This document shows positions 26,929-52,175 of a DNA stretch of 64,000 nt, in pieces. How positions within the stretch are numbered: the first letter of the stretch is position 1; every line of letters begins with the position of its first letter. A program made the position numbers and the translations under genes. Origin of the DNA: Hypnocyclicus thermotrophus (GTDB lineage Bacteria; Fusobacteriota; Fusobacteriia; Fusobacteriales; Fusobacteriaceae); assembly GCF_004365575.1 (NCBI RefSeq), contig NZ_SOBG01000003.1, positions 124,001-188,000 on the forward strand. Reading direction: 5' to 3'. The notes beneath the pieces are model-generated. The model made no database searches. It was not told where the DNA came from and saw nothing but the letters and a program-made list of their open reading frames with translations.

Positions 26929-28485
26929 TTATTCAATATCCTTAATATATTTTGTTACCATATTTTTACCATTTCTTTTTGACTTATACAAAGCTGAGTC
27001 TACATTACTAACAAATTTATACATATCTATATTCATGCTTTTGTTATATTCACCAACTCCCATACTTATAGTTATTTTGAGTTTTGCACCTTCATATTCT
27101 ATAATTACATCTTCTACTCCTTTTCGAATTATTTCTGCTATTTCATAAGCTTCTTCTAATTCAGTGTCTGGAAAAAGTACAACAAATTCTTCTCCACCAT
27201 ATCTTGCTGCAATATCTTGTTTTCTTATATATGCTTTTATTGTTTGAGCTAATGTTTTTAATGCTTTATCTCCTGCTACATGTCCATATGTATCATTAAA
27301 TCTTTTAAAATTATCTACATCTATCAATAAAAGACTTGTTTTTACATGCTTATACATTTCTAATTTTAATTGTCTTTCAAAAAAGATATGATTATATAAA
27401 TTAGTAAGTCCATCTGTTATAGCAGAATGATACAATTTCGAATTATTTAATGCTGTTGTTATTTGTAATTTTAAGGTGTTATAAAAATCCGTATCTATCT
27501 TTTCTTCACTTTCAATTATAGCAGCACCTACAATAAGTTGTTTATTTACAAAAGGTATTAAATATGTATTTTCATTTAATTCTATAATTTTTTCTAATCC
27601 TTCTATAATTTCACTATTTTTTAATTCTTTATAATTTTTTATATTTGCACTTGAAAGTATTCTATATTTCAAATTTTCATTAATATAAAAAGTTTTATTA
27701 TCATTTAAAAATACATAACCATTACTTGAATGTAATTTAAATTCTGATTTATCTTCATCAAAATTAAATATAATAAATTTTTTTGCTTTATAAATTTCGA
27801 AAAATATATCTATAACATAATTTATTAATTCATTTAAATCAAGAGTATTATTAAGTAATGTTGAAGCATAATTTAAAACTGTTAAATTAAAATTTGTTTT
27901 ACTTAATTCTTTATTTTTTTCTTCCATTTGATATGTATATGATGAATTTTCAAGTATTATAGATATTTGTCCTGATACTGTAGTTAAAAACTCTGTATCT
28001 ACATCTGTATAATCACCTAATGATTTTTCGCCTATAATTATTATAAAATACTCTATTTCTTCGCCTTTTATTAATTTAAAAGAAATAATATATCCTTTAT
28101 AAAAACTTTCTGTTATCTCTGATAAAAATCCTCTTTGTTTTGCTATATTTATTGATATTACTCTTTGTTTTACTAGTTCTTCTAAAAATTTTTCATTATA
28201 ATTTAATTTAACATTATTATTTTCTATGTTTATCCCTTTTTTATTTAATATTTCTAGTTTTTTATCTGTTATACTAAATGCAAAAGCTTTTTGAACCAAA
28301 TTCACTTCAAAAAACATATCACAAATCACATATTTTAATGTATTTAAATCTTTTTCTAAAGCTATAGTTTGAGTAAGTTGATTTAATGCCATTATCTTAA
28401 AACTTCTCTCAGAATATTTGTTTTTTAGTTCTTGCAATTCTTCTTCTAGTTTTTTATATTTTTCCTGAATATCATTTTCCACCAT
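26929..28485 (-). CDS. GAF-domain diguanylate cyclase (GGDEF)
   Basis: A 518-residue soluble protein. A short coiled coil (EKYKKLEEELQELKNKYSE) is followed by two GAF-like domains (about 45-180 and 200-350) and a C-terminal GGDEF domain with DGLTNLYNHIFFE, DVDNFKRFNDTYGHVAGD and the active loop YGGEEF. It should synthesise cyclic di-GMP under control of a small ligand or partner bound to the GAF domains. It is the last gene of the long unit with dnaX and the HEAT-repeat protein. Confidence 0.88.
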   Translation of the reverse strand: MVENDIQEKYKKLEEELQELKNKYSERSFKIMALNQLTQTIALEKDLNTLKYVICDMFFEVNLVQKAFAFSITDKKLEILNKKGINIENNNVKLNYNEKFLEELVKQRVISINIAKQRGFLSEITESFYKGYIISFKLIKGEEIEYFIIIIGEKSLGDYTDVDTEFLTTVSGQISIILENSSYTYQMEEKNKELSKTNFNLTVLNYASTLLNNTLDLNELINYVIDIFFEIYKAKKFIIFNFDEDKSEFKLHSSNGYVFLNDNKTFYINENLKYRILSSANIKNYKELKNSEIIEGLEKIIELNENTYLIPFVNKQLIVGAAIIESEEKIDTDFYNTLKLQITTALNNSKLYHSAITDGLTNLYNHIFFERQLKLEMYKHVKTSLLLIDVDNFKRFNDTYGHVAGDKALKTLAQTIKAYIRKQDIAARYGGEEFVVLFPDTELEEAYEIAEIIRKGVEDVIIEYEGAKLKITISMGVGEYNKSMNIDMYKFVSNVDSALYKSKRNGKNMVTKYIKDIE

Positions 28486-28501
28486 GCCCTTATGCTCCCT
28501 A

Positions 28502-30166
28502 TTATATTATTTTCATAAATTTTTCTGCTATATTTTTTATATCTTCGTCTTTTAATTTTTCTACTAATAACGCACCATAAAAACTCTTAGCTACATCTTT
28601 TGCTGTTTTTGATAATCTTTCATCTATATTATTTACATATTTAATAACTATATCTATTAAGTTATACAATTTCATGTCTTTTACAACCAATAAAACTATT
28701 TTTTTTAACATCCACCATTCATCATCAGTTTCTAATATTTTCATAAATAATTTTTCTACACTATTTTTATCATATTTTACAGCATTTACTATTAGTTTTG
28801 CTCTTATTTCTCTATCAACTTTTTTATCTATAACAAAATCTTTAAATAATTTAAATGGTATTTGAAATTCTTCTACCATTTTTATAGCTCTTTCCATAAT
28901 AGGTTTTTCATATCTTCTTTTATTAAGTATTTCTATTAATATTTTTTCTACTCTTTCATCTTTATAATTTAATAAAATATCAATTGTTTCAAATTTTATG
29001 TTTTCAATTACATTATTTTCTTTTAAAACATCTTCTAATATTTCATTATAGCCTAATTTAGCTAAAGACTCAATTGCTACTTTCCTTATATCCTGTTTAT
29101 TACTAGTTATATATTTTTTTATATAAGGAATAGCTTTTTCATTTTTTAGGTTTCCCAATTCAACAATTAAAGTTCTAATTATTCTTTCATCACTTTCTTC
29201 TGATAATAGCAATACAAATTGTTTAAATATATTTAAATTTTTAGATTTTCCTAATAACATAATAACAAGTTTTTTTATTAACCACCATTCATTTTCAGTA
29301 AAAAGCATTGTTTTTAATTTTTCTAATATCTCTTCTTCTTCTATATTTGTAAATGAAGTCAATGCCTTTGCTCTAATGTCTCTATCACTATTATCTAATA
29401 ATCTTAATAAAAATTTGTTTTTTTCATTATTTTCTACATTTTCAAGTGATTCTATTAATTTTATTTTATCTTCTTTTTCTTCTAATTTGTCAAATAACTC
29501 TTCATATAATTCTCCTGTTCCTTTTATATGAAGGTCTGCTATACTTGAAATTAATATTTTAATAATATTCTTATCTGTAACTTCAGATATTAATTTTTTT
29601 AATACTACTAAAGCTTTTTCTGCTGGAATTAGTCCTAGAATATTTAAAAGTTCTATTTCACTCATATTTTCTATATAATCTAAGAAAACCTTAGAATCTT
29701 GAATATATAATCTTATTAAATTTTTTATCTCTTTTTCTTTTGAATTATAATATTTTAAAAGTAATTTTATCGCTTCTTCTGTATGAATAATATTTAATGT
29801 ATCTATTATTTCTAATTTTATATTTATATTTTCATTATCAATAAAATCTTTAAAATATTTCACATATTCTTCTGCTTTTAATTTTTTTATTCCATAAATC
29901 AATAATTCTAATATATCTTCATCTTGTATTTTGGATAATGGCAAAAAATTATCTAAAAAACTAGCATCTCCTATTTCTATAAGTGCGTGTATTGCTGATT
30001 CTCTTACTGAAAAACTCTCATTTTCATTTTTAGCTATTTTAATTAAACTATCTTTAGCTACTATACTCTTCATTTTCCCTAATTCTGTTATTGCTTTTAC
30101 TTTTTCATCTTTTGAAACATTTTTACCTAATTTTTCTACATACATAAATTCATAATACTTAGACAT
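28502..30166 (-). CDS. HEAT-repeat protein
   Basis: A 554-residue all-helical protein composed of roughly 14 HEAT-like repeats. Recognisable units include ESFSVRESAIHALIEIGD, NSDRDIRAKALTSFTN, KQDIRKVAIESLAKLGY and DREIRAKLIVNAVKYD. Two units share the sequence ENEWWLIKKLV / DDEWWMLKKIV, suggesting internal duplication. It is probably a protein-interaction scaffold. It lies between dnaX and the GAF-GGDEF gene with spacers of 16 bases, so it may link to the cyclic-di-GMP enzyme. Confidence 0.8.
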   Translation of the reverse strand: MSKYYEFMYVEKLGKNVSKDEKVKAITELGKMKSIVAKDSLIKIAKNENESFSVRESAIHALIEIGDASFLDNFLPLSKIQDEDILELLIYGIKKLKAEEYVKYFKDFIDNENINIKLEIIDTLNIIHTEEAIKLLLKYYNSKEKEIKNLIRLYIQDSKVFLDYIENMSEIELLNILGLIPAEKALVVLKKLISEVTDKNIIKILISSIADLHIKGTGELYEELFDKLEEKEDKIKLIESLENVENNEKNKFLLRLLDNSDRDIRAKALTSFTNIEEEEILEKLKTMLFTENEWWLIKKLVIMLLGKSKNLNIFKQFVLLLSEESDERIIRTLIVELGNLKNEKAIPYIKKYITSNKQDIRKVAIESLAKLGYNEILEDVLKENNVIENIKFETIDILLNYKDERVEKILIEILNKRRYEKPIMERAIKMVEEFQIPFKLFKDFVIDKKVDREIRAKLIVNAVKYDKNSVEKLFMKILETDDEWWMLKKIVLLVVKDMKLYNLIDIVIKYVNNIDERLSKTAKDVAKSFYGALLVEKLKDEDIKNIAEKFMKII

Positions 30167-31658: not shown

Positions 31659-32606
31659 CTAAAAATTAAAATCTACTTTTATTTTTACTTTCCCATCTAC
31701 TAATATTCCATTATCACTTTCTATTGAAATTTTCCAATCTCTAGCTACTTTTTCCACTGCTCTATCTATTTCCGACTCTCCACTTTTTCTTTCTATTCCT
31801 TCATAAATAGTTTTTGCTCCTTTTACTGTAAATATAACTGTAACATTTCCATTTAATCCTTTTAATTCAGCTTTTCTAGGATATTTAGGCAATTCATTTC
31901 CTTCATACCATATAGCCCTTCCATTTCCTTCTAATACTTGTGAAGTTATATTTTTAGGCATAGCTATCTCTTCTTCTGTCCCATCTAATTCTAAAATATT
32001 TTCTGTATCAATAACCCTATCATTTATATCAAATTTAGTTCCTATATTTTTTGTATTTGTATTTATATAATCTACTTCTTTTGCTTTTACATCAAGTTTC
32101 AAATCTTCAATCATTTTTACTTTTTCTTGAGTAGATTCTTTTTCTAATACAACAATATCTCTATTTATAGTATCATCTACACTCGTTGTTGGTATTTCTA
32201 CGTTTATTTTTCTTGTTGTTAAAGCTCCATCTACATTGGTACTTAAAATCTTTATATCATCTATATTTCTTTTACTTTTTCTTTTTACAGATATTACTGG
32301 TATTTTTTTTAAGTTCTCCTTACTATTTTCCTTTTTTTTTGGACTTTTTTCAAGTTTTTTTTCTATTTTTGTTATTTTAGGTGGAGCTATTTTCTTTTTT
32401 TCTATTATTTTCTTAGGTACAGTACTTTTTTTCTTTGTATCATCTTTTATTGAAATAATCCCAGCTTTTATTGTTTTTATTTCTTGATCTTTTTCTATTT
32501 CTTTTTCCCTAAAACCTGGTAAAAAAATTATTCCTAATAAATGAATTACCATAGAAAAAACAAGTACGATATAAAATAAGTTATTATTTGTTTTTTCATA
32601 ATACAT
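31659..32606 (-). CDS. TonB-like energy transducer
   Basis: A 315-residue protein with one N-terminal membrane helix (NLFYIVLVFSMVIHLLGIIFL). A long periplasmic Lys/Pro/Glu linker (KKIAPPKITKIEKKLEKSPKKKENSKE) follows, and the C-terminal 90 residues resemble the TonB domain (LPKYPRKAELKGLNGNVTVIFTVKG, then DRAVEKVARDWKISI). It couples the inner-membrane proton-driven ExbB/ExbD motor to outer-membrane receptors. The ATG at 32606 follows AGGTGAT; the longer GTG frame begins inside that site. It is preceded by exbD (9 bases) and followed by dnaX. Confidence 0.82.
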   Translation of the reverse strand: MYYEKTNNNLFYIVLVFSMVIHLLGIIFLPGFREKEIEKDQEIKTIKAGIISIKDDTKKKSTVPKKIIEKKKIAPPKITKIEKKLEKSPKKKENSKENLKKIPVISVKRKSKRNIDDIKILSTNVDGALTTRKINVEIPTTSVDDTINRDIVVLEKESTQEKVKMIEDLKLDVKAKEVDYINTNTKNIGTKFDINDRVIDTENILELDGTEEEIAMPKNITSQVLEGNGRAIWYEGNELPKYPRKAELKGLNGNVTVIFTVKGAKTIYEGIERKSGESEIDRAVEKVARDWKISIESDNGILVDGKVKIKVDFNF

Positions 32607-32615
32607 TTTTATCAC

Positions 32616-33059
32616 CTACTTACTATTTTCAGTAGCTATATCTAGTGACAATGCACCTGCATCTTTTGCTTTAGTCATTATATCTACAATAAAACCATGT
32701 GACAAAGATTTATCAGCTTTAATTATAATATTTTTATTTTCACTATTAGCTAATTTTTTAGCTAATATTTCTTTAAGATCATCTGTTTTTTTTATATTTA
32801 CTGTATTTCTTTTTCCATTTTTTTCATTTATTAAAAGTTGTACATTTTCATTTTTATCAGCTAATATTATTATCTCTTTTATTTTAGAAAGTTCTTTTAC
32901 TGTTGATTTTGGTAATTCTATTTTTATTCCTGTATTTACTTCTATAAAAGTTGTTCCCACCATAAAAAATATTAATAATAAGAAAACAACGTCTATTAAT
33001 GGAGTTAAATCTATTGTAAGCATTTTTCTATCTCTATCTCTTATTTTTCTTATTTTCAT
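32616..33059 (-). CDS. exbD: Biopolymer transport protein ExbD/TolR family
   Basis: A 147-residue protein with the family's single N-terminal membrane helix carrying the conserved Asp ([25 protein letters not shown]) and a periplasmic domain ending in [23 protein letters not shown]. It forms the proton channel with ExbB. Its position directly between exbB and tonB favours ExbD over TolR. Confidence 0.93.
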
Positions 33060-33069
33060 AAATTCACTC

Positions 33070-33684
33070 CTACTTTCTTAAGATATTTATTACTTCTACT
33101 GATACTTTTTCCATTTCATTTATTTTTTGTTCTATTTTTCTATTAAAAAAATTATAAAATATAACAGCTGGTATAGCAACTGTCAATCCTGCAGCTGTCG
33201 TTATCAAGGCCTGTGATATACCGTCTGCAAGTACTGCTGGATTCCCTGTCCCAACTTTAGCTATTTCTCTAAATGCTATTATCATTCCTGATACTGTACC
33301 CAATAATCCTACAAGTGGCGTTACTGTAGCTGTTACTCCTAATAACCACATATTTTTTTCTAGACTAGGTATTCTATGTAAGGCTATTTCTCTTGCCTTT
33401 TCTTCTAGATTTTCTATATTTATTTCATGAGCATACTCTACTTCTTCTAATATTCCTTTTAATACAATGATACTTGAATTATTATATAAAGTACATAACT
33501 CTTGAGCTCTTTCTATATCTCTTTTCTCTATATATACCTTTAATTCCTCTTTTATTATATCTGTATTCCCTCTTTCATGTACAAAAAAATATATAAATCT
33601 TTCTATTATTACAGCAAATCCTAATATTGATAATGCTGCTATTAAATACATTAATGGTCCACCCGACTTAAATATCTCTAACAT
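33070..33684 (-). CDS. exbB: MotA/TolQ/ExbB proton channel family protein
   Basis: A 204-residue inner-membrane protein. There is an N-terminal helix ([23 protein letters not shown]), a cytoplasmic loop and two C-terminal helices with [14 protein letters not shown] and [25 protein letters not shown], the ExbB/TolQ signature. It makes the proton-motive motor with ExbD, 10 bases downstream. A GGAG site precedes the ATG. Confidence 0.93.
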
Positions 33685-33780
33685 TTTTCTCCTTTCTATC
33701 CTCTCTTTATTTAATTATAAAAAAAATTATTATTTAAGTTAGTTTGATCTTCAAAAATAATAACTTTTTGTCAATATTTT

Positions 33781-35460
33781 TTAGTATTGCATCTCAAAAT
33801 TCAACATAAGTTTTCTTCCGTTTATAGTATACCCTTTCATTTCTTCACTCTTATTATTAAATAAATTATTTATATTAAAACTAATTTTCATCTCTGGTGA
33901 TAATTTATAATTATATTTAAAGTTTACTAAATTATATGATTTTATTAAATATCTACTTGTGTCCTTAGCATCGGTTGTATAAAACTTACCATAATTTACA
34001 AGTGATAACTCATACATATTTTTCCCCATTTCATAACTACCATTTAATTTTATAGTTGATTTTGGTGAATAAGCTATTTTTTCAAGAGTCGATAAATCAA
34101 GTATAAATTCTCCTTTATAATTATCCTTTGTATATGTAGCTTTTGAAAGTAGTTCTATCCAATTAATATTTGAACTATAATTATATATCTCTATCGCATT
34201 TTCTGTTGCTGATATCGATTTTTCTTGATATACTATTTTATTTTTTGCATTATTTATTTTTAATTTTCCTTCTAAATAAAGAGAATCTTTTATATAATTA
34301 ATTCCCGTTCCTATGTTAAAGTTTTTTTCTGTTAAAAGTTCTGTTTGATTATTACTTGCATCTACTATTTCTATAATATCATCTGCTATTTTAAAATTAT
34401 TTACTAAATTTCTATAATTACTATTTTTATTTATATTATTAATAAATGCTGAAACACTAATATTATTTTTTAATGGTTTTGTCCCTTCAAATCCAAAATT
34501 CAAGCCTGTTTCACTTTTTTCATGTTGCCTATTTGCTATTTCAAGCCCTGCAGTTGCTTTAAAATCTATATCTTTATATTTATCATATTTAAATCTATCA
34601 TTTACATCAACATACAACACACCTGTTCCCGACTCATCAAATCTATCTATATAGTATCCTCCTTCAGTTAATAAAATATGATTAAATTGATTACTATTAA
34701 TAACAGCTTCGTATTCTCCATATAATTTTATAAAATAGTTACTAAAATTTCTTAAAACTTCTGTCGAAGTAGATTCACTTATATACATATTCGTCCCTAA
34801 AAATATAGACTCTTTTGCCTCATTTTTTAATTCATATTTTAAATCAAAATCAGTATTACTATATTTTTTATCAGTTCCTGTCCCTACATTTTTAATTCCT
34901 TCAAAATCTTGATTTAATAACTCATGAGATATTTTCACATTATATTTATCCATATCCATATCTATACTAAAATAATCAGTACTCTTATCACTATGAGTTC
35001 TATATTCTCCAGCAACTTCTCTCTTTAAGTTTATTATATAATTTATATTTTCATATTTACTTGTATAATTAATTCCATAATTAAATGCATCTAATTTTTT
35101 ATAACCTCCTATTCCCATATAAAAAATATTACTATCTTTTTTAGTATTTGATAAATTTTTTACATTTTCAATTATATCATCAATATTTATTTCGTTTAAA
35201 TCATCATTTACATTTAATGCCGTTTCTTTTGTTTCAGCTGTTAAATTTTCAATATCTACTTTTGTATCTATATTTAAATTTTTCAATTCTATATCTTTTA
35301 TATCTATATCCTTTATACCATCTTTTAAATCTCTACCAACATTATAAACTTTTTTTAATTCTCCTTTTACCTCGGTTGATATATCATACTCATTATCTTT
35401 TGTTTCATTTGCAAATATAATACTACTTATCAATAAATATAATAATATTTTTTTATTCAA
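33781..35460 (-). CDS. Outer-membrane beta-barrel, TonB-receptor-like but without a recognisable plug
   Basis: A 559-residue exported protein. The start is taken as TTG at 35460, 9 bases after GGAGG, giving a signal peptide NKKILLYLLISSIIFA; an upstream ATG at 35505 lies inside the TPR gene and before the ribosome site. Residues 20-95 are a charged repeat-like region (DGIKDIDIKDIELKNLNID), not a TonB plug. The rest is antiparallel-strand pattern and ends in FNINNLFNN then GRKLMLNFEMQY, very like the last strands of TonB-dependent receptors. With exbB-exbD-tonB immediately downstream, it is probably an outer-membrane transporter or assembly partner; its ligand is unknown. Confidence 0.7.
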   Translation of the reverse strand: MNKKILLYLLISSIIFANETKDNEYDISTEVKGELKKVYNVGRDLKDGIKDIDIKDIELKNLNIDTKVDIENLTAETKETALNVNDDLNEINIDDIIENVKNLSNTKKDSNIFYMGIGGYKKLDAFNYGINYTSKYENINYIINLKREVAGEYRTHSDKSTDYFSIDMDMDKYNVKISHELLNQDFEGIKNVGTGTDKKYSNTDFDLKYELKNEAKESIFLGTNMYISESTSTEVLRNFSNYFIKLYGEYEAVINSNQFNHILLTEGGYYIDRFDESGTGVLYVDVNDRFKYDKYKDIDFKATAGLEIANRQHEKSETGLNFGFEGTKPLKNNISVSAFINNINKNSNYRNLVNNFKIADDIIEIVDASNNQTELLTEKNFNIGTGINYIKDSLYLEGKLKINNAKNKIVYQEKSISATENAIEIYNYSSNINWIELLSKATYTKDNYKGEFILDLSTLEKIAYSPKSTIKLNGSYEMGKNMYELSLVNYGKFYTTDAKDTSRYLIKSYNLVNFKYNYKLSPEMKISFNINNLFNNKSEEMKGYTINGRKLMLNFEMQY

Positions 35461-35473
35461 AATTCTTTCCTCC

Positions 35474-38296
35474 TTAATTAAAATATTCTTTATATTTAGA
35501 AGCATTTTCTTTGTTTAATTTTTTAAGCTCTATATAGTAGTTCTTTGCTACATTTAATTTTTTATTATTAATATAATAAACCATCAATTTTTCTACAACA
35601 TATGGATAATCACTTCCATGTTTATATTTGTCATAATATTCTTTAAAGCTTAAAAGTGCTTTATTAAATTTACCATCTAACTCATAAAGTTCACCTAATT
35701 TAATCAATACTATATCTTGCAAGTTACTTTCTGTATAAATTAATTTTATTTTTAAAAATGCTGATATTGCCTTTAAATAATTATTTTCTAATTCATAAGA
35801 TTCTCCTATTTTAAATAAGGCTTTATCTTTGTATTCACTTATTTCAAATGACAATACTTTTTCATAATATTCTCTTGCTTTTTCATAGTCATTATCATTA
35901 AAATAATAGTTTCCTATATAATAATTTGCAATATCTCCGTATTTTTTATCTTTTGTTATTTTTAAATATTCTTCAAATGCTTTTTTAGGTTGTTTTGCTT
36001 TATCATAAATAAATCCTTTATATAAAGTTTTGTAATTTTTATCTTTTAATAAATTATTCCATTTTAATGCATTTTGTATATCATTTTCAGCATAGTACAA
36101 TTCCATTATTTTTTTAGCTGTTGTTTCTTTTTTTATTAAATCTGTTGTTTTTGAATATATCTCTTTATATTCTTTTATTGCAAGTTTATTTTCATTTTGT
36201 TTTAAATATATATTTGCTTTAATATAAGAAATATCATTTAAATATTCACTTTTTTTATAATTATCCTCAAACTCTTTTATTTTATTTAATGCTACATCAA
36301 AATTATTATTTATATATTCTATATTTATTAACCAATATTTAGAATTTTCTATATTTTTTTCATTTTTTGAATTCTTTATAACTTTTTCATAATATATTTT
36401 AGCATTTTTATAATTTTTTTCATTATAATATGTCTCTGCTATCATATAAGTAGCTAAGTCTTTATAATCATTATTTTTTTCTAATTCTTTATATATATTT
36501 CTAGCATTTTCATATTGATTCAATCTAAAATACGCAAGTGCTTTATTTTGCATAATAGTATTATAATCAAGTTTATATTGATTTTTTTCATATTCTTGTG
36601 CATACTTTATAACTTTTTCAAATTGCTTTGTTAATAAATATACTTCAACTAATTTTACATTTGCTCTTTCTTTTTCTTTTACAGAAGTTTCTTCCGATTT
36701 TATTAAAGATAAAAAAGCTTTTTCAGCTTCTTTAAAATTACTTAAACCTAAATTTGCTATTCCTCTTAAATATATATTCTCATCATCTATTTCTTCTTTA
36801 TCTAAATAAATTAATAATTCTTTGTATTTTCCTCGTTTTAATAATACTGTGATTAAATTTTCTAAAATTACGCTATCATCTTGAATTTTTAAAAATTCTT
36901 TATAAACTTTTTCTCCTTTTTCTAATTCATTATTTTTTATATATATATTCCCTATTGTCAAGTATATTTCTTTTCTATACTTTCTATCATTAGAAAAATT
37001 TGAATTGTATTCATTATATAAATTTTCAAGTTCATCTAAATTTTCTAAACTAGAATTTATTAATACTAATTTATATAAATCTTCTAAATTTTTACTTTTT
37101 GTATAAATTTTATTATAATATTTTTTTGCTAAATTAAATTCTTTCAATACATAAGCAGATTCAGCTAAAAATATATCTAAATAATTTTCATACTTTACAT
37201 TTCCATTACTGTCATATCCTTCTAATAATGTTAGTACTTCTTTATATTTTTTATCATTATATAATAGATATGCTGTATAGTATAAATATTCATAATGATA
37301 TTTTGTATCTTTTAATTTTTTTAAACTTTCAATAGTTTCATTTTTTTTATTCTCATTAAGCAATACTAATGAATATTTTAATCTTATATCTTCATTTTCA
37401 TTTTTTTCTAATACAAATCTATAGTATTTTTCTGCTTCAGCATATTCTTTTATATCATATTTATAATCAGCTAACAGTATATTAGCTAGCATTTCATATT
37501 TTGTACCTTTTAATTTTAATGCATAGTTTTCAAACTCTTTATAATCTTTTAACTCACGGTATATAAGCATTAAATCTCTAAGCGTCTCATTATAATAAAC
37601 ACTATTTTTATATTCATTTTCTATTTTCACATAATAATCAATAGCAGACATAACATCTTCTAATTCTTTATAAGATACTCCTAGCATGTAATAAGCTCTA
37701 GCTATATTATCTTTATCATTTTTTTCTAAACTAATGTACTCTTCTAAATAAACTGTTGCTTTTATATACTCTCCTTTATTATATGAAATTACTCCTAAGT
37801 TTAATAACCCCTGTTTTTTATTTTCTCCTTGTAATGATATCAATGATTTAAAATAAATTTCTGCTTCGTCTACTTTACCCTTTTTATATAAATATTGTGC
37901 TAAATTATATGTACTTATTTCTCTATATTTACTGTCTCTAGATATTTTTTTTAGTACTACTTTCGCATCTTCTTCTCTATCTTCATTAATATATATAACA
38001 CTTAAATAATAATATGCTTTATCAGAAAATTCAGAATTTAAAATTTTTTTATAATTTTTTTCTGCATTTTCATAATCTTTTGTAATATAATAAGTGTTTC
38101 CTAGCATATATACTGCAGTTGAATAATATTTTGAATTTGGATATTTTAAAATAAAATTTTCTAATTCCATTAATGTTATTTCGTATTCTTTATTTTGATA
38201 TAACTTTTGTATATATTTCATATCATCTAAATCAGATGATAAACTTTGAATATATAAAGAACTAAATAAAATTAATAATAATAATTTTTTCTTCAT
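35474..38296 (-). CDS. Large exported TPR protein
   Basis: A 940-residue protein with a signal peptide (KKKLLLLILFSSLYIQSLS) followed almost entirely by tetratricopeptide repeats, around 25 units of the A-Y-Y-A-x-x-Y-K type (DYENAEKNYKKIL, YAEAEKYYRFVLE, YEKAREYYEKVL). TPR arrays of this kind in the periplasm commonly support outer-membrane protein assembly or receptor function. The ATG at 38296 sits 8 bases after AAAAGGAG; the longer frame begins inside that site. The gene is adjacent to the beta-barrel and ExbB/D/TonB genes, and its stop is 13 bases before the barrel start, so a shared function is inferred. Confidence 0.85.
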   Translation of the reverse strand: MKKKLLLLILFSSLYIQSLSSDLDDMKYIQKLYQNKEYEITLMELENFILKYPNSKYYSTAVYMLGNTYYITKDYENAEKNYKKILNSEFSDKAYYYLSVIYINEDREEDAKVVLKKISRDSKYREISTYNLAQYLYKKGKVDEAEIYFKSLISLQGENKKQGLLNLGVISYNKGEYIKATVYLEEYISLEKNDKDNIARAYYMLGVSYKELEDVMSAIDYYVKIENEYKNSVYYNETLRDLMLIYRELKDYKEFENYALKLKGTKYEMLANILLADYKYDIKEYAEAEKYYRFVLEKNENEDIRLKYSLVLLNENKKNETIESLKKLKDTKYHYEYLYYTAYLLYNDKKYKEVLTLLEGYDSNGNVKYENYLDIFLAESAYVLKEFNLAKKYYNKIYTKSKNLEDLYKLVLINSSLENLDELENLYNEYNSNFSNDRKYRKEIYLTIGNIYIKNNELEKGEKVYKEFLKIQDDSVILENLITVLLKRGKYKELLIYLDKEEIDDENIYLRGIANLGLSNFKEAEKAFLSLIKSEETSVKEKERANVKLVEVYLLTKQFEKVIKYAQEYEKNQYKLDYNTIMQNKALAYFRLNQYENARNIYKELEKNNDYKDLATYMIAETYYNEKNYKNAKIYYEKVIKNSKNEKNIENSKYWLINIEYINNNFDVALNKIKEFEDNYKKSEYLNDISYIKANIYLKQNENKLAIKEYKEIYSKTTDLIKKETTAKKIMELYYAENDIQNALKWNNLLKDKNYKTLYKGFIYDKAKQPKKAFEEYLKITKDKKYGDIANYYIGNYYFNDNDYEKAREYYEKVLSFEISEYKDKALFKIGESYELENNYLKAISAFLKIKLIYTESNLQDIVLIKLGELYELDGKFNKALLSFKEYYDKYKHGSDYPYVVEKLMVYYINNKKLNVAKNYYIELKKLNKENASKYKEYFN

Positions 38297-38303
38297 ATAG
38301 CTA

Positions 38304-38855
38304 TTACTCCTTTTCACTTATAGTTTTTATTACAGTTTCAATTTCTTCAACATTTACATTAGTATTTATGCAAGGCCCATTTTCTCTTGTATTAAATATT
38401 CCATAAACAAGAAGTGGAATTGAATCATAAATACCTGATATTAAATCTCTTTCACAAGCTACAGCTATTACTAATTTTGGTCTATGCTTTTTTAAGAATA
38501 TTCTCGCTAAAGTTCCACCTGTAGCTACTTTTACACTAATACCATATTTTTTCTTTAATTTAATGATTTTATCTATTACACACTTTCCACACTCTTTACA
38601 ATTTTCTATATCACTAGTTATTTTAAATGTACACTCATATGCTTGCAAACAATGTGGCAATAATAATGCTATTTCATTGCTTTTTATTTTTTTATTCTTA
38701 ATTATTTTCATTACCCTTTTATTATTAAATTGAATAAATTTTTCTGATATATTAGAATTTGTATAATCCTCTTTTCTAATTTTTATGAAAATTAATATAA
38801 TTATATAATATAAAGAATACAGTATTTTAATTAGAATAATATTAATTTTTTTCAT
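38304..38855 (-). CDS. DUF116 family protein
   Basis: A 183-residue protein with an N-terminal membrane helix (IILIKILYSLYYIIILIFI) and a cytoplasmic domain with LLPHCLQAYECTFKI then CKECGKCVIDKI, GISVKVATGGTLARIFL and AVACERDLISGI. This Cys-rich pattern is the DUF116 family, possibly metal- or cluster-binding; its function is unknown. The ATG at 38855 follows GGGTGAT. It is the first gene of the TPR/barrel/ExbBD/TonB/dnaX run. Confidence 0.85.
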   Translation of the reverse strand: MKKINIILIKILYSLYYIIILIFIKIRKEDYTNSNISEKFIQFNNKRVMKIIKNKKIKSNEIALLLPHCLQAYECTFKITSDIENCKECGKCVIDKIIKLKKKYGISVKVATGGTLARIFLKKHRPKLVIAVACERDLISGIYDSIPLLVYGIFNTRENGPCINTNVNVEEIETVIKTISEKE

Positions 38856-39072
38856 TTTTATCACCCACTTTATTTTTTACACTAGTTTTATTCTACCATA
38901 ATTAAACTCAATATTCTAGAGTTTAAAAAGAGAATTTTTTATTTTTAAAAAATATTATAAAGAATATTTATATAGTTGTGAAAAATAAGTTCAAATTACT
39001 AAATTATTAAATTATTTAATAGAAAAACTTATAAATTAAGTTTAAAAGAAATATTAAAAAACTATACAAAAC

Positions 39073-39112
39073 AAAAATATGGCCGTGAAAAAAATTTCAC
39101 GGCCATATTTTT
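39073..39112. terminator. Strong bidirectional terminator
   Basis: An 18-bp perfect stem AAAAATATGGCCGTGAAA / TTTCACGGCCATATTTTT with a 4-base loop, at the end of the small outer-membrane protein gene (stop at 39111). The 220 bases from here to the DUF116 gene hold nothing recognisable beyond AT-rich spacer. Confidence 0.93.
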
Positions 39113-39704
39113 AAAAAAAGAAAAATTTAATTCCAAATTTTAAATTTAAAGTTTTTAACGAAAGATAAGTTAACGCTGCTGCTGTCGTTATATCATATTT
39201 AGATTCTGAATAACTCGCTTCTAACATTATATCATAATATTCTATCCCCATTCCTATTTCATAAAAACTTACTCCTTTTAGAGTTACACTTCCTCCAGTT
39301 ACACTATTTGTTACTAAAACCGGCCTTCCAACTGTTCCATAAAAATAAGGAATTATATTCAAATCCTCACCCTGGTCATTATACCCATATACATTTAATT
39401 TAAATGTACCATATGGACTAACATCTAATATTTTTAAGTCTTCTCCTAACGAGGACACTGTATTAGATATTCTAAATAAACTTGTTTTAGCACCTAATAA
39501 AAATTCTGTTGGCCCTCCTGTAGGAATAGAAAGTTCTGTATCAAATGCTAACTTTGATAAACTATCCGCTTTTTGAATAGCTGATGTTCCTGCAGTATCT
39601 ACTGCAACATTTTGCATTATCGGATATCCCGCTTTAATGTTTATGTTTATTTTTGCAAAACTTATGCTTCCAATTAATAAAAAAAGTATTAATATTTTTT
39701 TCAT
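39111..39704 (-). CDS. Small outer-membrane beta-barrel-like protein
   Basis: A 197-residue protein with a signal peptide (MKKILILFLLIGSISFA) and alternating strand pattern with Gly turns. It ends KTLNLKFGIKFFFF, an aromatic C-terminus typical of outer-membrane barrels. The size fits an eight-stranded barrel, but no specific family is recognised. The ATG at 39704 follows AGGTG. It is monocistronic and followed by a strong terminator. Confidence 0.65.
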   Translation of the reverse strand: MKKILILFLLIGSISFAKININIKAGYPIMQNVAVDTAGTSAIQKADSLSKLAFDTELSIPTGGPTEFLLGAKTSLFRISNTVSSLGEDLKILDVSPYGTFKLNVYGYNDQGEDLNIIPYFYGTVGRPVLVTNSVTGGSVTLKGVSFYEIGMGIEYYDIMLEASYSESKYDITTAAALTYLSLKTLNLKFGIKFFFF

Positions 39705-39774
39705 TATTTTCACCTACTTTCTTAATATTCCTATATATTTATCGTCATTTTTTCTTTTTTTTTAATATCTATAT

Positions 39775-46496: not shown

Positions 46497-48428
46497 TTAT
46501 ATAAGCCTATTTAATAAATTATTGGTATAAAATATATTTCTTATTTTATCCACATCATTTTTTCTTAAATTACCTGTATGTGCACCACTTTTTCTTAATT
46601 TATTGACACTATATAAATCTCCTAAGTACTGATTATAAGGACTAATTCTATTGTTTCTGATTGTATAAAGTACACCACCTAATGTTTTTGCATCACTAGG
46701 AACTCTAGACCCTAAAAGCACTCTTAATTGTTTTTCTACAACTTTACAGTATTCTACAACAATGGGTGCAAAATCAATAATGCTAAATTTATGGATTTCA
46801 TACAGTGTTTCAGCAGTGATTAAAAATTCTTTTGCGACATTATTTAAATGCGCGAATGTTGAATTAACAAAGGTCTCTGCATTTCTATAAACAATGCTTT
46901 CTTTATTAATTATCTTAGACATCTCATTTAATATGTTTTCCATTTCTTTTTCATACTCTGTCCAGTCATCATCTTCATTGAGATTTAATTGCTCCGAATT
47001 ATTTTGAAGTTGCATCAGTTTAAATGCCCAATTTCTAATAAAATTTTTTTGAGCACTAATGCACTTCTCTATTTCTGTAAGTTTCATTTTAATTTCTTTA
47101 TGTTTTTCTAAGGTTACCTCGATTTCTGGCAATGTTTGATCCCATATCTCCCAATCACTCTTTTGGGGAAGTTTTTCTTTTGCAATTTCTAAATAAGCTT
47201 TTGCATTCTCATAATCTCTTAGTAAATTAAAAGATGATATTAAACCTTTTAATATTTCATATAATATCAGATCTAAACTATTGTTGGATGCAATGGAATA
47301 CATTTTATATTTGTTAGTATCGTTAAACTTATAAACATTTTCCCCAGCATTTATATGTCCTAGACACAACTGATACATTTCAACTGCATCTTTGTATTTT
47401 TTCATTCTTTTATAAATATCGGCAACCACCAATAATGTAGTATCATCTTCTATTAAAAAAAGTGCCTTGTTTCCCCAACCTAGTGCTTCTTCAAAACGAC
47501 CCTGACGTTTCAATAACTCTGCATAATTAGAAAAGTTTTGATTGCATGGATTTATTTTAATTAGATCCAATATTAATTTTTCTGCTTTTTCAAAATGCTT
47601 GTTCTCCATTAATGCAACAAAATAATTACCTCTTATCTGAGTTTTTTGTTTATCATCATTTGAAAGTTCTATCGCTTTGAGAAAGTAAGATATCGCATCT
47701 TCTTTTCTTTTAATTTCTGAATTTAGACATATCCAACCCAGGCTATTATATGTTGATGAATTAGGCCACTCTTCAATGCATCTTTTTCCCAATTCGTACG
47801 CTCTTATTGTATCATTTCCAATGCCAAGATAATACATAATCGCTACTCCGCACAGACCTGCATTCATGCCAAATTTATTGAACAACGTGTCCGTAATTTT
47901 ATCTAATCCTTCTTTTATTGTTTGAGAGTAATTATCTCTATTTGCATACTCAATTGCATTCTGATATTCTTCAATAATTTGTATACTCATCGGACTAAAA
48001 ATATTTGTGTCCTTATATTTACTTAAATATAAACAGGCATCTTGGTATTCTTTTAATTCCAAACATATACCATACATGTTTTTTAAGGCAGCTTGATTAG
48101 TGTCTTTTAATTCAAGTGCCTTATTACAGTATATTTTTGCATCTTTCAAGTCAGATAAATTATGATTTAAACAATAAAGTACTCGTTTTGCCAAAGCCAT
48201 GTTCACATATGTACCGGTTATACAAGCATGTCTTGAATTTTTTGATACAATTCGCTTCCCGATCTCTAATATTGTATGACAATTTTTCTCATTTTTAAGT
48301 CCTCTTGTTAACTCCAATTGCTTGAGATATAATTCTTCTACATTTTGTTCAGATAATTTATTAATACAACATTTTTTATATTTTTTCCCACTGCCACAAG
48401 GACATGGGTCATTTCTCCCAATTTTCAT
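46497..48428 (-). CDS. SEC-C / TPR protein with HEPN-like C-terminus
   Basis: A 643-residue protein. Residues 3-21 are a SEC-C zinc motif (GRNDPCPCGSGKKYKKCC). Residues about 60-420 are TPR-like helical repeats (ALELKDTNQAALKNMYGICLELKEY, KNSSTYNSLGW-type units). A coiled region follows to about 530. The last 100 residues are helical with RKSGAH (R612 to H617), an RX4H pattern resembling the catalytic motif of HEPN ribonucleases. It is the last gene of the operon, 14 bases after the membrane protein. SEC-C motifs often bind proteins or ribosomes. A toxin or effector role is inferred from the HEPN-like motif and neighbours. Confidence 0.7.
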   Translation of the reverse strand: MKIGRNDPCPCGSGKKYKKCCINKLSEQNVEELYLKQLELTRGLKNEKNCHTILEIGKRIVSKNSRHACITGTYVNMALAKRVLYCLNHNLSDLKDAKIYCNKALELKDTNQAALKNMYGICLELKEYQDACLYLSKYKDTNIFSPMSIQIIEEYQNAIEYANRDNYSQTIKEGLDKITDTLFNKFGMNAGLCGVAIMYYLGIGNDTIRAYELGKRCIEEWPNSSTYNSLGWICLNSEIKRKEDAISYFLKAIELSNDDKQKTQIRGNYFVALMENKHFEKAEKLILDLIKINPCNQNFSNYAELLKRQGRFEEALGWGNKALFLIEDDTTLLVVADIYKRMKKYKDAVEMYQLCLGHINAGENVYKFNDTNKYKMYSIASNNSLDLILYEILKGLISSFNLLRDYENAKAYLEIAKEKLPQKSDWEIWDQTLPEIEVTLEKHKEIKMKLTEIEKCISAQKNFIRNWAFKLMQLQNNSEQLNLNEDDDWTEYEKEMENILNEMSKIINKESIVYRNAETFVNSTFAHLNNVAKEFLITAETLYEIHKFSIIDFAPIVVEYCKVVEKQLRVLLGSRVPSDAKTLGGVLYTIRNNRISPYNQYLGDLYSVNKLRKSGAHTGNLRKNDVDKIRNIFYTNNLLNRLI

Positions 48429-48442
48429 CGTTCACCTTCATT

Positions 48443-48946
48443 CTACAGCTTTGTTTTTGGCAACTTTATATTAGTGTTACTACCAAGAATACTTGCCCCT
48501 ATACCAATAACCGTAAAAACAGCCACTGCGCCTAATGAAATCATTTTCCAGTTAAATTCCTTGTTTTCTGTATCTTTACTTTCAGCCATTTTTGCAATTT
48601 CCATCATTTTCTCGATGTAATATTTTTTCTCATCAAAAGGTACATGATCTTTCGCCAGACAACTTTTCAAAGCATCCATCACTTCATTGTATATGTCATA
48701 GCACTGCTTACTACTCGCTGAATTTTCATCCAAAGTTTTTTCCATGACCCCTTTATAATCTTTCAATACCTCCAGAGTCATTTTTGCAAATTCCGGAAAT
48801 TGCTCTAATGCTTTCTTAGCAACTTCTGGTTCCATATTCTGCAACATAGATGCAAAGGTCATCACTTTATCTTTTGTAATATGTCGAAAATCGGGAATAT
48901 CCAATCGCTGCAGTACTTCTCGTTCTGTTAATTGATTAATCATCAT
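48443..48946 (-). CDS. Tail-anchored single-helix membrane protein
   Basis: I do not recognise this 167-residue protein. Residues 1-130 are soluble and helical, rich in Met, Glu and Lys (TFASMLQNMEPEVAKKALEQF, KKYYIEKMMEIAKMAESK). A single membrane helix (WKMISLGAVAVFTVIGIGASIL) lies near the C-terminus, followed by a short basic tail, so the bulk faces the cytoplasm. A GGAGG site precedes tandem ATGs at 48946 and 48943. It starts 9 bases after the DUF262 gene. A membrane effector or anchor for the neighbouring proteins is a plausible inference. Confidence 0.65.
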   Translation of the reverse strand: MMINQLTEREVLQRLDIPDFRHITKDKVMTFASMLQNMEPEVAKKALEQFPEFAKMTLEVLKDYKGVMEKTLDENSASSKQCYDIYNEVMDALKSCLAKDHVPFDEKKYYIEKMMEIAKMAESKDTENKEFNWKMISLGAVAVFTVIGIGASILGSNTNIKLPKTKL

Positions 48947-48955
48947 TTTATCCTC

Positions 48956-50646
48956 CTATCCCAATAAAGCACGAATTCTTTCCGTAAGAATTGTCTTTCT
49001 CTTTTCATAGAACTCATCAAAATTCTCAAGTTCAAGTGAAATACCTTGTGGAATGAAAGACTGCTTGCAGAACTCTGCTTTTTGTTCATCATTCATATCA
49101 TTGTAAAAATCAACAAGTCTCATATCGTTCTTGCTGCCATTGCTTCTTCCTTCCAAAAGATGCAGATTAGCCAGTCTATTACGGTTGCCTCTCCATCTTC
49201 GCCACTCTTCCATAGAAACGGATATCGGCTTACTACCGTCAAACCTATCGAAGGGATGTAGATGGTCTTGCTCATACTTGAAATTTTTATTTATCCAGTC
49301 TAAACTGAGATAATACAAGGCCTCCCCTGCAACTCTACTACCTTTTTCAGTATTAAGAATATCTTCAATTTTACCATCAGTGACTCTGAGATCATTCATC
49401 TGATTAAGCATATCAACAGTAATTTCATAGTCATTTTCGTTGATTCTACTCTTCATCTGCTGTAGTTTTCCTGTTGTACCAGATTGGAAATATGTAAAAA
49501 GAATTGCTCTAATCAAGTAAGCACGGATTCCATCAAGGTTATTTCCATAATCGGGGTTATAATAAATAAAGTAGAGTATAGGCAATAGGACGTTCCAGCT
49601 ACTTGAAAAACGCCTAACTTCAATCTTCATTCCTTTTAGCACGGTTTCCAAATTCTTTAATGCCCTTTTAAATTCACTCCAATTGTTCTTAAGTTCCTCA
49701 GCTATTTGTTTGCTAATATTGGACTTTACAACATCACCATAAAGCATAAGAGCAGAACGGATAATAAAATCCGAGCCAAATCCGGCATAAGAATCTACGA
49801 GAAGTCTTCCAAATTCAGTTTTTGCACTTGGCCAGTATGCCTCAAGAATAGACATTGTTATTTCAGATTTTTTAAGAGCTTTTCCACCGCTATTGAATCT
49901 TACAAACATTTCCAAAGCATCATCCTGTTTCATATCATGTATTTCCGTAAACCGAATCAGCTTATCCACAAATATTTTATTGTACAGCTTATTCAAAATA
50001 CCTCTTGCATACTCTTTACTATCTGACGGAACATTAGCAATGGCATCTTCGATAGCTTTATCCCTAGTTGTTTCATCTTGAAATCTAGAATCTAAGATAC
50101 ATTTAATTTCAAATTGAGTTGGACTTAGCTTTCCAACTTTTTCACTGAATTTAATGTCATATTTCTTGCTATTGTACTCTTCTTCATCAACCGTCAATTT
50201 ATTCTTATTAAGTTCAATCAACAATTTTGTAACAATGCCACCTCCATTTTTTCTTCTTGCGTGCTTTTGGCGAATAAAAGCTTGACCTAATAAAGAAAGA
50301 AACAGTGAAGTTAATCTCTGCTGTCCATCAAGAACTGCTGTATTCGTAATCTTTACATCAATATTACTTAATTCATAATTCACGCTATCTGCTTGTTTTC
50401 TGCTGTCAAAAGTAACCTCAGACAAAAAATTGCAGAAATATGTGTCCCAAGTTACGTTGTTATCATCCACATGCCAAAATAAGAATGTTGCTATTGGATA
50501 ATCCAAGAGAATTGAATCCCATAGTTTTTCTATCTGCTCCATATTCCAGACATACTGCCTTTGGAATGCAGGCATAACATATTTTCCATTTTTAATATTT
50601 TGTATAGCCTCATAGATACTTATGCTGTCATCAATTAACTCGCTCA
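48956..50646 (-). CDS. DUF262/DUF1524 protein (GmrSD-like)
   Basis: A 563-residue protein. The N-terminal DUF262 (ParB/sulfiredoxin-like NTPase) has FQRQYVW near residues 28-34 and the signature VLDGQQRLTSL near 106-116. The C-terminal part has an HNH-type DUF1524 pattern: DHLHP at 461-465, NRLANLHLL near 490 and NGSK near 503. This single-chain order is that of GmrSD type IV restriction enzymes and related anti-phage nucleases that cut modified DNA. The start is taken as ATG 50646; a GTG at 50659 is the alternative. It sits in the RHH/HNH/membrane/SEC-C operon. Confidence 0.82.
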
Positions 50647-50662
50647 TTGTGATACCCACACA

Positions 50663-50785
50663 TTATTCTTTAATATTTTCCACTTTTCCACATGACATTG
50701 TTCTTTCAGTACATGTAGTTTCAAAATTGTACATCAAGGCATAGATCCCTTCGTTCTTGAAAAACAATCTACCTTGAATTTTCAC
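50663..50785 (-). CDS. Possible 40-residue peptide between HNH and DUF262 genes
   Basis: An open frame from GTG 50785 to TAA 50663, starting 5 bases after the HNH stop and ending 16 bases before the DUF262 start. The predicted peptide begins VKIQGRLFFKNEGIYALMYN and contains two Cys (TTCTERTMSC). It neatly fills an otherwise unexplained 144-base gap in a tightly packed operon. The ribosome site is weak, and no family is recognised. Confidence 0.35.
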   Translation of the reverse strand: MKIQGRLFFKNEGIYALMYNFETTCTERTMSCGKVENIKE

Positions 50786-50790
50786 AACAC

Positions 50791-51546
50791 TTAGTACGCA
50801 CTTTGATACAATGTACTTGTCTTACTGTTATCTGATTTTTTTAAATTACAATCCTTACATGATAATTGGATGTTACAAACATCATTTAATCCGCCTTCAT
50901 TCAATGACACAATATGGTCAAAATGTTTTTCATTATCTTCTAACAATGAATATAACCCTGTTAAATCCTTTTTGCAGAACACACAGCATCCTTTGTCCCT
51001 AAATAGAACTGCACGTTTTACCCATTCTGGTATATACACTCTTTTTCTTGGATTGTCTTCAAATGCAACCGCTTGTTGCTCATTAAATCTTAGTAAAAAA
51101 TCTCTATTTTGAAACAAAATGTACTCCACTTCAGTGGCAATATCATAAAGAACATCATAAAATAAGCCATCCTCAAATTTATCAAGATATGATATGTATT
51201 CATTATATGTTTCTAAAAAATCCTCATAATCAATTGTAAAATCATTGTTTATCGAAACATTTATTCCTTTATATTTCAAAATAGCCTGGTTAATCCAATT
51301 AATAGGATTAAAATCTGCGACTTCTCCTGAATTTGATATGGAATTTGCCTGCTCGTAAAAAACTCTATCAATAAGCCATGAGCAATACTCTCTTAATACT
51401 GATACTTTAGGAAAGTCCTCTGGTTCTATTTCAAACTGTCGTTCTGTAAATTCAGCATTTGTTCTAGCATAGTTAAACTCTCCCATACTTTCATTTGCAA
51501 GATGGCAAAAATAATACACATTAAAGAACTTCATATCAATAGTCAT
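50791..51546 (-). CDS. HNH endonuclease domain protein
   Basis: A 251-residue protein. The first 180 residues are acidic and helical with no recognised family. The C-terminus is an HNH/treble-clef nuclease: RDKGCCVFC, DHIVSLNEGG with the catalytic His, and VCNIQLSCKDCNLKKSD, with two Cys pairs for zinc. It starts 2 bases after the RHH gene, with GGAGG before the ATG. HNH proteins paired with DUF262 proteins are frequent in restriction and other defence loci; its target is unknown. Confidence 0.82.
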   Translation of the reverse strand: MTIDMKFFNVYYFCHLANESMGEFNYARTNAEFTERQFEIEPEDFPKVSVLREYCSWLIDRVFYEQANSISNSGEVADFNPINWINQAILKYKGINVSINNDFTIDYEDFLETYNEYISYLDKFEDGLFYDVLYDIATEVEYILFQNRDFLLRFNEQQAVAFEDNPRKRVYIPEWVKRAVLFRDKGCCVFCKKDLTGLYSLLEDNEKHFDHIVSLNEGGLNDVCNIQLSCKDCNLKKSDNSKTSTLYQSAY

Positions 51547-51548
51547 TT

Positions 51549-52070: not shown

Positions 52071-52104
52071 TGGTTATACCTCCGTACACTAATTTACTGT
52101 TTCT

Positions 52105-52133
52105 AGTATAATGCAGAAATTAGTATTAGTCAA
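52105..52133 (-). promoter_or_regulatory. Promoter of the RHH-HNH-DUF262 operon
   Basis: On the minus strand TTGACT (52128-52133), 17-base spacer, TATACT (52105-52110), about 35 bases before the RHH start codon. It lies downstream of the recombinase terminator, so the operon is a separate transcription unit. Confidence 0.85.
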
Positions 52134-52138
52134 TACTA
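52121..52138. promoter_or_regulatory. Palindromic operator overlapping the -35 box
   Basis: TAGTATTAGTCAATACTA has 7-bp inverted arms (TAGTATT / AATACTA) around a 4-base centre and covers the -35 hexamer. A related TTAGTATT-like half site (ACTAATT) recurs at about 52143-52164. This is the expected place for binding of the ribbon-helix-helix protein encoded next. Confidence 0.65.
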
Positions 52139-52175
52139 ATAGACTAATTTGTATTTACTAATTACAAAAATCAGA

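What the first reader, a model, noticed from the sequence alone, without database searches (positions are those of the whole stretch)
31659..38855. Plugless TonB-receptor-like barrel with dedicated ExbB-ExbD-TonB and a 940-residue TPR protein, leading into dnaX
The barrel ends like a TonB-dependent receptor but has a repetitive charged N-terminus instead of a plug, and it is encoded beside its own motor genes, a large periplasmic TPR protein and DUF116. The set resembles a purpose-built outer-membrane energy-coupled machine rather than an ordinary siderophore system.
Basis: partly seen in the sequence, partly recalled or inferred. Interest (0 to 1): 0.5.

Follow-up and report, generated by a model that had tools for sequence, protein, structure and literature searches.

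The report
Fusobacterial Ton-motor operon with swappable anchor
A bacterial gene set beside the DNA-replication gene dnaX encodes a proton-driven motor, a long periplasmic scaffold and an outer-membrane barrel without the usual plug; nearly all sampled relatives outside one family keep the set, but most replace the barrel with a tiny, usually tailed protein, so it is probably an unstudied cell-envelope machine and not a nutrient importer.

Summary
The minus strand reads DUF116, 947-aa TPR, 559-aa barrel, ExbB, ExbD, TonB, dnaX. The barrel is of TonB-receptor type (all 50 listed Foldseek hits are receptors, though model confidence is low), with no Pfam Plug hit and no confident structure before strand 1.

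New: what stays constant. The TPR gene is strong in 58 of 61 own-family genomes and in the single f2, f3 and f6 genomes (f5 weak, locus seen), but in 0 of 33 f4 genomes. In 61 genomes whose loci I read, the slot between TPR and ExbB holds the plugless barrel in 8 and a 98-130-aa protein in 51 (2 undetermined). The short protein has a signal peptide, a motif like I-D-K-E-V-T-G-V-N-K and, in 45 of 51, a hydrophobic tail; barrel N-termini carry a similar motif. Eight genomes at least 90% complete have the operon but no detected plugged receptor. TolB_N gives only 4 weak hits in 98.

Best reading: a proton-driven, Tol-Pal-like trans-envelope module whose membrane partner has a TonB-box-like N-terminus and an exchangeable anchor; the barrel anchors and does not transport. 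Function is inferred. "Dedicated motor" is doubtful here: it is this genome's only ExbD and only TonB_C match.

The parts
38304..38864 (-). DUF116 protein, 186 aa, first gene of the conserved block
   Evidence: PF01976 163 bits; directly before the TPR gene in most of the 62 loci
35474..38317 (-). TPR protein, 947 aa, signal peptide by eye, inferred periplasmic scaffold
   Evidence: Pfam TPRs; TIGR02795 ybgF-type TPR 127.8 bits, cut-off 90.1; AF2 mean pLDDT 87.7, all helical from residue 29 to 946, about 26 helical hairpins; strong match in 58 of 61 family genomes
35469..35474 (-). ribosome-binding-site-like AGGAGG before the probable TTG start at 35460
   Evidence: sequence
33781..35460 (-). 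plugless TonB-receptor-type barrel protein, 559 aa
   Evidence: PF00593 18.7 bits, below its cut-off of 27; all 50 listed Foldseek hits are TonB-dependent receptors; VIA best Z 20.2
35344..35388 (-). TonB-box-like motif YDISTEVKGELKKVY (residues 25-39), resembling that of the short protein of relatives
35131..35406 (-). mature N-terminal leader (residues 19-110), charged and repetitive, without confident structure, in place of a plug
   Evidence: block pLDDT 22-35 up to residue 110; no Plug hit
33784..35130 (-). barrel domain, residues 111-559, 23 strand segments in the model
33070..33684 (-). ExbB/TolQ-type motor subunit, 204 aa
   Evidence: PF01618; TIGR02796 tolQ 97.9 bits against TIGR02797 exbB 82.8, both below cut-off; best PDB match is an ExbB, E 1.2e-17, TolQ next at 3.1e-14
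32616..33059 (-). ExbD/TolR-type subunit, 147 aa; the only ExbD match in this genome
   Evidence: PF02472
31659..32615 (-). TonB-family force transducer, 318 aa; the only TonB_C match in this genome
   Evidence: PF03544
30183..31646 (-). dnaX, the next gene; housekeeping neighbour, no functional link shown

Best explanation
The operon encodes a proton-motive-force-driven trans-envelope module that is widespread in the sampled phylum outside family f4. SHOWN by sequence: a Ton/Tol-type motor (ExbB, ExbD), a TonB-family transducer and a ~950-aa exported TPR protein are kept together. The gene between TPR and ExbB encodes one of two exported proteins with a similar short N-terminal motif: a plugless TonB-receptor-type barrel, or a 98-130-aa protein that usually ends in a hydrophobic tail. 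INFERRED: the motif is a TonB-box-like handle that TonB grips; barrel and tail are alternative membrane anchors, so the barrel is an anchor and not a transporter; the TPR superhelix is the periplasmic scaffold around the link. Cycles of motor-driven pulling would act on the outer membrane and its tethering, a Tol-Pal-like job in a phylum where TolB is barely detectable. In this genome the same motor probably also serves the single plugged receptor.
For: Order DUF116-TPR-(barrel or short protein)-ExbB-ExbD-TonB-(NtrC-like)-dnaX in most of 62 TPR-bearing loci from 61 genomes; ExbB follows in 51 of 51 short-form loci and in 6 of 6 barrel-form loci whose contig continues. TPR strong in 58 of 61 family genomes plus f2, f3, f6, weak in f5 (f5 locus). 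A HMM of five full barrels lists 7 of 29 short proteins at E 3.4e-7 to 1.4e-4, signal peptide included, and no ORF outside the barrel and short-protein set among 941. With signal peptides cut, the first 24 hits of the barrel-leader HMM among 2139 sequences are short proteins, but only 5 reach E 0.01. In whole genomes the barrel profile hits the short gene within its positions 1-90 in 6 genomes. 8 genomes at least 90% complete carry the operon with no Plug match (in G051 the contig ends after ExbD). TolB_N: 4 of 98, 3 of them barely over the cut-off. TPR protein over the YbgF cut-off. Structure.
Against: No functional data. Family f4 lacks both a strong TPR match and TolB, so a Tol-Pal substitute is not indispensable in the phylum. 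Pal is not excluded: 0 of 98 pass the Pal cut-off, but only 2 of the 4 ringing control genomes pass it either, and 96 of 98 have sub-cut-off OmpA-like matches. Without the signal peptide the barrel/short-protein similarity rests on about 13-20 residues: in the reverse search only 1 of 9 barrels (L022, E 0.097, place 5) is near the top; hhalign probability is 13.6%; on a motif PSSM L022 beats all 1391 background ORFs and L031 all but 5, while the window's barrel is beaten by 111. The motif is not the phylum's canonical TonB box: 13 plugged receptors have 101-892 of 1391 background ORFs above them on that PSSM. Motor HMMs and PDB matches disagree on TolQR or ExbBD. The short protein's tail has lysines on its N-terminal flank, odd for an inner-membrane anchor, and 6 of 51 have no hydrophobic tail, so its membrane is unknown.
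Confidence: 0.42

Rival explanations
1. Export conduit: the TPR protein and the open barrel form a secretion or polysaccharide export route, like TPR-plus-barrel exporters (BcsC, AlgK/AlgE, recalled), energised by the Ton motor.
For: Large exported TPR next to a plugless barrel; a TonB-dependent transporter is required for PopC secretion in Myxococcus (PMC6434023, start of abstract seen).
Against: In 51 of 61 genomes no barrel sits in the slot while TPR and motor stay; in those genomes the barrel profile finds only partial matches of at most about 180 of 560 positions, mostly receptor C-termini; no synthase or cargo gene among the neighbours scanned.
Confidence: 0.15
2. Degenerate nutrient receptor: the barrel is a TonB-dependent importer that lost or diverged its plug, with an ordinary Ton motor beside it.
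For: Barrel fold is that of receptors; TonB and ExbBD are adjacent.
Against: Only about 90 mature residues before strand 1, about 50 by eye in L044, short for a plug (107 positions in PF07715); the short form has no pore; the operon is present in genomes with no Plug match, one of them only 0.8 Mb (G001, 91% complete).
Confidence: 0.12
3. Envelope sensor: the barrel or short protein signals through TonB to the NtrC-like regulator encoded next to it.
For: NtrC-like gene directly after TonB in most loci.
Against: The regulator is absent at this place in the window's genus and in f5; no signalling domain was seen in the barrel.
Confidence: 0.08
4. Surface-motility or trafficking machine of the Agl-Glt type: the motor drags the TPR and outer-membrane parts.
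For: Myxococcus gliding uses a TolQR-like motor with exported TPR proteins and predicted outer-membrane proteins (PMC3169522, passages read).
Against: No other Glt-like parts were sought; a core replication neighbourhood suits housekeeping better.
Confidence: 0.06

Closest known systems
Ton system with TonB-dependent receptor (BtuB, FhuA)
   Same: ExbB, ExbD and TonB families; receptor-type barrel fold
   Different: no plug found; barrel replaced by a short protein in 51 of 61 genomes; tied to a 947-aa TPR protein
Tol-Pal system (TolQRA, TolB, Pal, CpoB/YbgF)
   Same: same motor superfamily; an exported TPR protein that passes the YbgF TPR model
   Different: transducer has a TonB C-terminus; TolB barely detectable in the phylum; Pal unresolved; TPR protein far larger; a barrel or short protein takes part
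Agl-Glt gliding machinery of Myxococcus
   Same: TolQR-like motor, exported TPR proteins, predicted outer-membrane proteins (PMC3169522, passages)
   Different: no TonB there (recalled); other gene content not compared
vWA force-transducer systems with TPR and TolQR-like genes in the PVC group
   Same: TPR gene next to 5:2 motor genes, function unknown (PMC12204202, passages)
   Different: transducer is a vWA protein, not TonB; the passages seen describe no barrel or short protein

Membership tests
TonB-dependent receptor | receptor-type barrel of about 22 strands | tested here: met
   23 strand segments, all 50 listed Foldseek hits are receptors, VIA best Z 20.2; model confidence low, mean pLDDT 51
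TonB-dependent receptor | N-terminal plug domain | tested here: not met
   no PF07715 hit up to E 0.1; leader of about 90 residues without confident structure
TonB-dependent receptor | TonB box at the mature N-terminus | tested here: inconclusive
   a short conserved motif near the mature N-terminus, but not the canonical box of the phylum's plugged receptors
Ton motor | ExbB, ExbD and TonB_C domains over their cut-offs | tested here: met
   108, 88 and 36 bits against cut-offs 22.9, 25.4 and 24.6
Tol-Pal | TolB | tested here: not met
   no TolB_N match in the own genome; 4 of 98 weak matches in the phylum, 3 just over the cut-off
Tol-Pal | Pal lipoprotein | tested here: inconclusive
   0 of 98 over the TIGR02802 cut-off, but it is passed in only 2 of 4 ringing controls; 96 of 98 have sub-cut-off matches
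Tol-Pal | TolQ and TolR | tested here: inconclusive
   TolQ/TolR models score above ExbB/ExbD models but below cut-off; PDB matches favour ExbB/ExbD
Tol-Pal | CpoB/YbgF TPR protein | tested here: inconclusive
   TIGR02795 127.8 bits over 90.1 in 5 stretches, CpoB model PRK10803 only 25.3 of 383; protein is 947 aa
Agl-Glt gliding machinery | set of Glt proteins | not tested
   only the motor/TPR resemblance was noted

The most novel reading that the evidence does not exclude
A third kind of proton-driven outer-membrane machine, neither plug-gated import nor Tol-Pal: TonB pulls on a TonB-box-like handle whose membrane anchor is evolutionarily interchangeable, a whole plugless receptor barrel or a short tail, on a long periplasmic TPR scaffold, and does the envelope-maintenance work of Tol-Pal in Fusobacteriota, in some species with no plugged TonB-dependent receptor at all.
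Probability: 0.33. Interest if true: 0.82.

Novelty: new variant of a known kind. Interest (0 to 1): 0.62.

Why it matters
How diderm phyla without a clear Tol-Pal system energise and maintain their outer membrane is open. This operon is a widespread, apparently vertically kept candidate in the sampled Fusobacteriota, with parts small enough to delete and test. A receptor barrel turned into a replaceable anchor would also show how Ton components can be re-used for something other than import.

Tried and rejected
Attributing the published F. nucleatum delta-tonB phenotype (mutant obtained; sensitive to carbenicillin, not erythromycin; PMC11705814, passages, outline, sections) to this operon: rejected. 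The upstream flank in the paper's primers encodes an ORF end ...TFYE-stop, which fits the other motor's ExbD class (L112, L114, L119, L120, L122 end in FYE) and not the operon's (ends like LDIDTASPGK, LDIATENEK). Of six primer stretches none matches a fetched locus exactly; det_F is best at 3 of 23 mismatches, inside a non-operon ExbD (L112), but upF's best matches (4 of 22 mismatches, L085 and L086) lie near the 3' end of operon tonB genes. The flank is the stronger evidence; F. nucleatum's own locus was not identified among the fetched ones.

Homology of barrel leader and short protein over their whole length: not supported once signal peptides are removed; only the motif carries it.

Naming the motor TolQR instead of ExbBD: conflicting evidence, left open.

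A clean clade of operon ExbB: the quick tree needs 3 changes for 57 operon against 23 other ExbB rows; receptor-linked ExbB of family f1 fall between operon rows, support is moderate and some branches are long.

Spread beyond the phylum: a MAG labelled Spirochaetes (G098) has TPR and barrel on one contig (L063) and an NtrC-like gene with ExbB-ExbD-TonB on another (L076); its DnaX scores lowest of 9 genomes compared; the contigs' GC is 0.365 and 0.413. Mis-binning or transfer not resolved.

The first barrel scan of genome contigs with the single protein found no relative.

Papers: eight searches that combined Fusobacterium, F. nucleatum, Fusobacteria or Fusobacteriota with TonB, Tol-Pal, ExbB/ExbD or outer-membrane terms (one search listed 12 of 95) showed no paper in their listings that is about this operon; most subscription papers are not held.

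Full report
What is there. On the minus strand of the window lie, in transcription order, DUF116 (38304-38864), a 947-aa TPR protein, a barrel protein, ExbB, ExbD, TonB and dnaX. The barrel gene most likely starts at TTG 35460, behind AGGAGG, not at ATG 35505. A terminator-like hairpin (39072-39113) and a promoter-like site (38954-38982) precede DUF116, but promoter-like sites are no commoner than in shuffles, 102 against 101.9. The genome is 2.2 Mb. Related loci found by name come from records titled Fusobacteriales, Fusobacteriaceae, Psychrilyobacter, Propionigenium maris, Ilyobacter polytropus, Fusobacteria and, once, Spirochaetes; that the phylum is Fusobacteriota is inferred from these.

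The barrel. Pfam gives only a sub-threshold receptor-barrel match, 18.7 bits against 27, and no Plug. NCBIfam receptor models match only about the last 80-100 residues. AF2 with five sequences gives 23 strand segments from residue 112 to 554 and, in the mature leader, only two low-confidence helices (mean pLDDT 51, pTM 0.46, so only the fold class should be trusted). The 50 Foldseek matches listed, of 189 at E<=0.001, are all TonB-dependent receptors, BtuB first at E 1.9e-11. VIA gives Z up to 20.2 with rmsd about 3-4.5 over about 370-410 residues; 32 of 50 rows start at model residue 109-112 on the receptors' barrel part, 18 start at model residue 36-42.

Conservation. The TPR protein has a match in 71 of 98 phylum genomes at E<=0.001. 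By my count of the listing 61 are strong (E below 1e-20): 58 of 61 in the own family (the three misses are 62-82% complete) and the single genomes of f2, f3 and f6. The other ten are weak, nine of the 33 in f4 and one in f5. I fetched loci around the TPR gene and annotated them with phmmer. Of 62 TPR-bearing loci in 61 genomes (one genome split over two contigs; the window not counted, G060 not fetched; one genome is the Spirochaetes-labelled MAG), 51 genomes have the short protein, 8 the barrel and 2 cannot be told: L102 ends inside the TPR gene, and L053 has a 1134-aa TPR ORF directly before ExbD. The f5 barrel (L044) was labelled by a profile HMM that did not contain it, E 1.5e-15. Because f2, f3, f5, f6 and two genera of the own family have the barrel, it is probably the older state; this is inference, not a tree test.

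The short protein. It has 98-130 aa, a signal peptide by eye, a motif of the type I-D-K-E-V-T-G-V-N-K behind it, and in 45 of 51 a hydrophobic C-terminus; six have an amphipathic or truncated end instead. A simple pattern, [KTEQNS][EDKTQ][VI]xGx near the N-terminus, is in 47 of 51 short proteins (scanned at residues 15-70) and in 38 of 1391 other ORFs (residues 15-50). Barrel leaders show YDISTEVKGELKK (window), NLGEKDVVGKDKR, NIREKEIVGEDKW, YQITKDVIGVNEK, LEVNKEVQGVNQK, NLGSKTVQGVAPQ, DLGEKKVIGEDKR and, by eye, NIEVVGKKRKK. The HMM of five full barrels lists 7 of 29 short proteins at E 3.4e-7 to 1.4e-4, signal peptides included, and nothing outside the barrel and short-protein set among 941 ORFs. 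With signal peptides cut, the barrel-leader HMM ranks short proteins in the first 24 places of 2139, E 0.0015 to 0.18, five at E<=0.01. In whole genomes the nine-row barrel profile hits six short genes at E<=0.001 within its positions 1-90. Against: in the reverse search only L022's barrel comes near the top (E 0.097); hhalign probability is 13.6%; on the motif PSSM (built from 50 of 51 short proteins) the best window is the motif in 8 of 9 barrels, but only L022 and L031 stand out from background. I therefore call the motif shared, and its TonB-box role plausible but unproven.

Motor and partners. The own genome has one ExbD, one TonB_C and one Plug match. Eight genomes at least 90% complete carry the operon with no Plug match: G040, G021, G041, G042, G044, G051, G097 and G001 (G001's TPR match is weak; G051's contig ends after ExbD; G021 has a second ExbD elsewhere). 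No receptor-like ORF at E<1e-10 lies in the operon loci read, while 14 of 20 fetched non-operon motor regions hold one. TolB_N gives 4 of 98 weak matches, 3 just over the cut-off (G044, G045, G046). No genome passes the Pal cut-off, but the control shows that the cut-off is strict: 2 of 4 ringing controls pass. The TPR protein is modelled as a pure helical-repeat protein, about 26 hairpins, mean pLDDT 87.7, and passes the cut-off of the YbgF TPR model. In Propionigenium maris the operon lies between gpsA, a sigma factor and dnaN on one side and dnaX, rplI and dnaB on the other: a core chromosomal setting that suggests vertical inheritance, not a functional link.

Mechanism. The constant parts are motor, transducer, TPR protein and a motif-bearing exported protein; the variable part is that protein's C-terminal anchor. 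The simplest account is that TonB pulls on the motif, with barrel or tail as anchor, to do mechanical work on the envelope. Shown: gene content, order, fold class, shared motif, near-absence of TolB_N. Inferred: export and topology, TonB binding, anchor role, Tol-like purpose. Against a general Tol substitute stands f4, which has neither.

Prior knowledge. A 2025 survey of force transducers cites earlier work that detected TonB in Fusobacteria and places curated Tol-Pal systems in Gracilicutes only (PMC12204202, passages and section 11 read). The one Fusobacterium tonB deletion found most likely concerns another motor (PMC11705814). I found no description of this operon in the searches listed under Tried and rejected.

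Noticed in passing
window 26929-30166: A HEAT-repeat and a GGDEF protein follow dnaX here and in barrel-form loci L023 and L067 (HEAT in L025, GGDEF in L031), but not in the barrel-form L043 and L044; Propionigenium maris (short form) has a 266-aa unknown, rplI and dnaB after dnaX.
   Followed up: partly
window 39111-39713: A 200-aa ORF with a signal-peptide-like start that looks by eye like a small outer-membrane protein, just before the operon, with a terminator-like hairpin at 39072-39113.
   Followed up: no
L063 and L076 (G098): A MAG labelled Spirochaetes carries the TPR-barrel pair (38% identity to the window TPR) and, on another contig, an NtrC-like gene with ExbB-ExbD-TonB.
   Followed up: partly
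between TonB and dnaX in most relatives: An NtrC-like sigma-54 regulator of about 465 aa sits there in most loci but not in this genus or in f5; its receiver domain is below the Pfam cut-off in Propionigenium maris.
   Followed up: partly
G097:C50:6609-8090: A second barrel-profile match in a 1133-aa ORF of the f6 genome, away from the operon.
   Followed up: no
family f4 genomes (G064-G096): No strong TPR match in any of 33; in 4 of the 5 f4 ExbD regions fetched (L110, L116, L117, L124; not L111) a receptor-like ORF sits next to the motor.
   Followed up: partly
window 48000-64000: GC content rises to 0.32-0.39, against 0.18-0.30 in the rest of the window.
   Followed up: no
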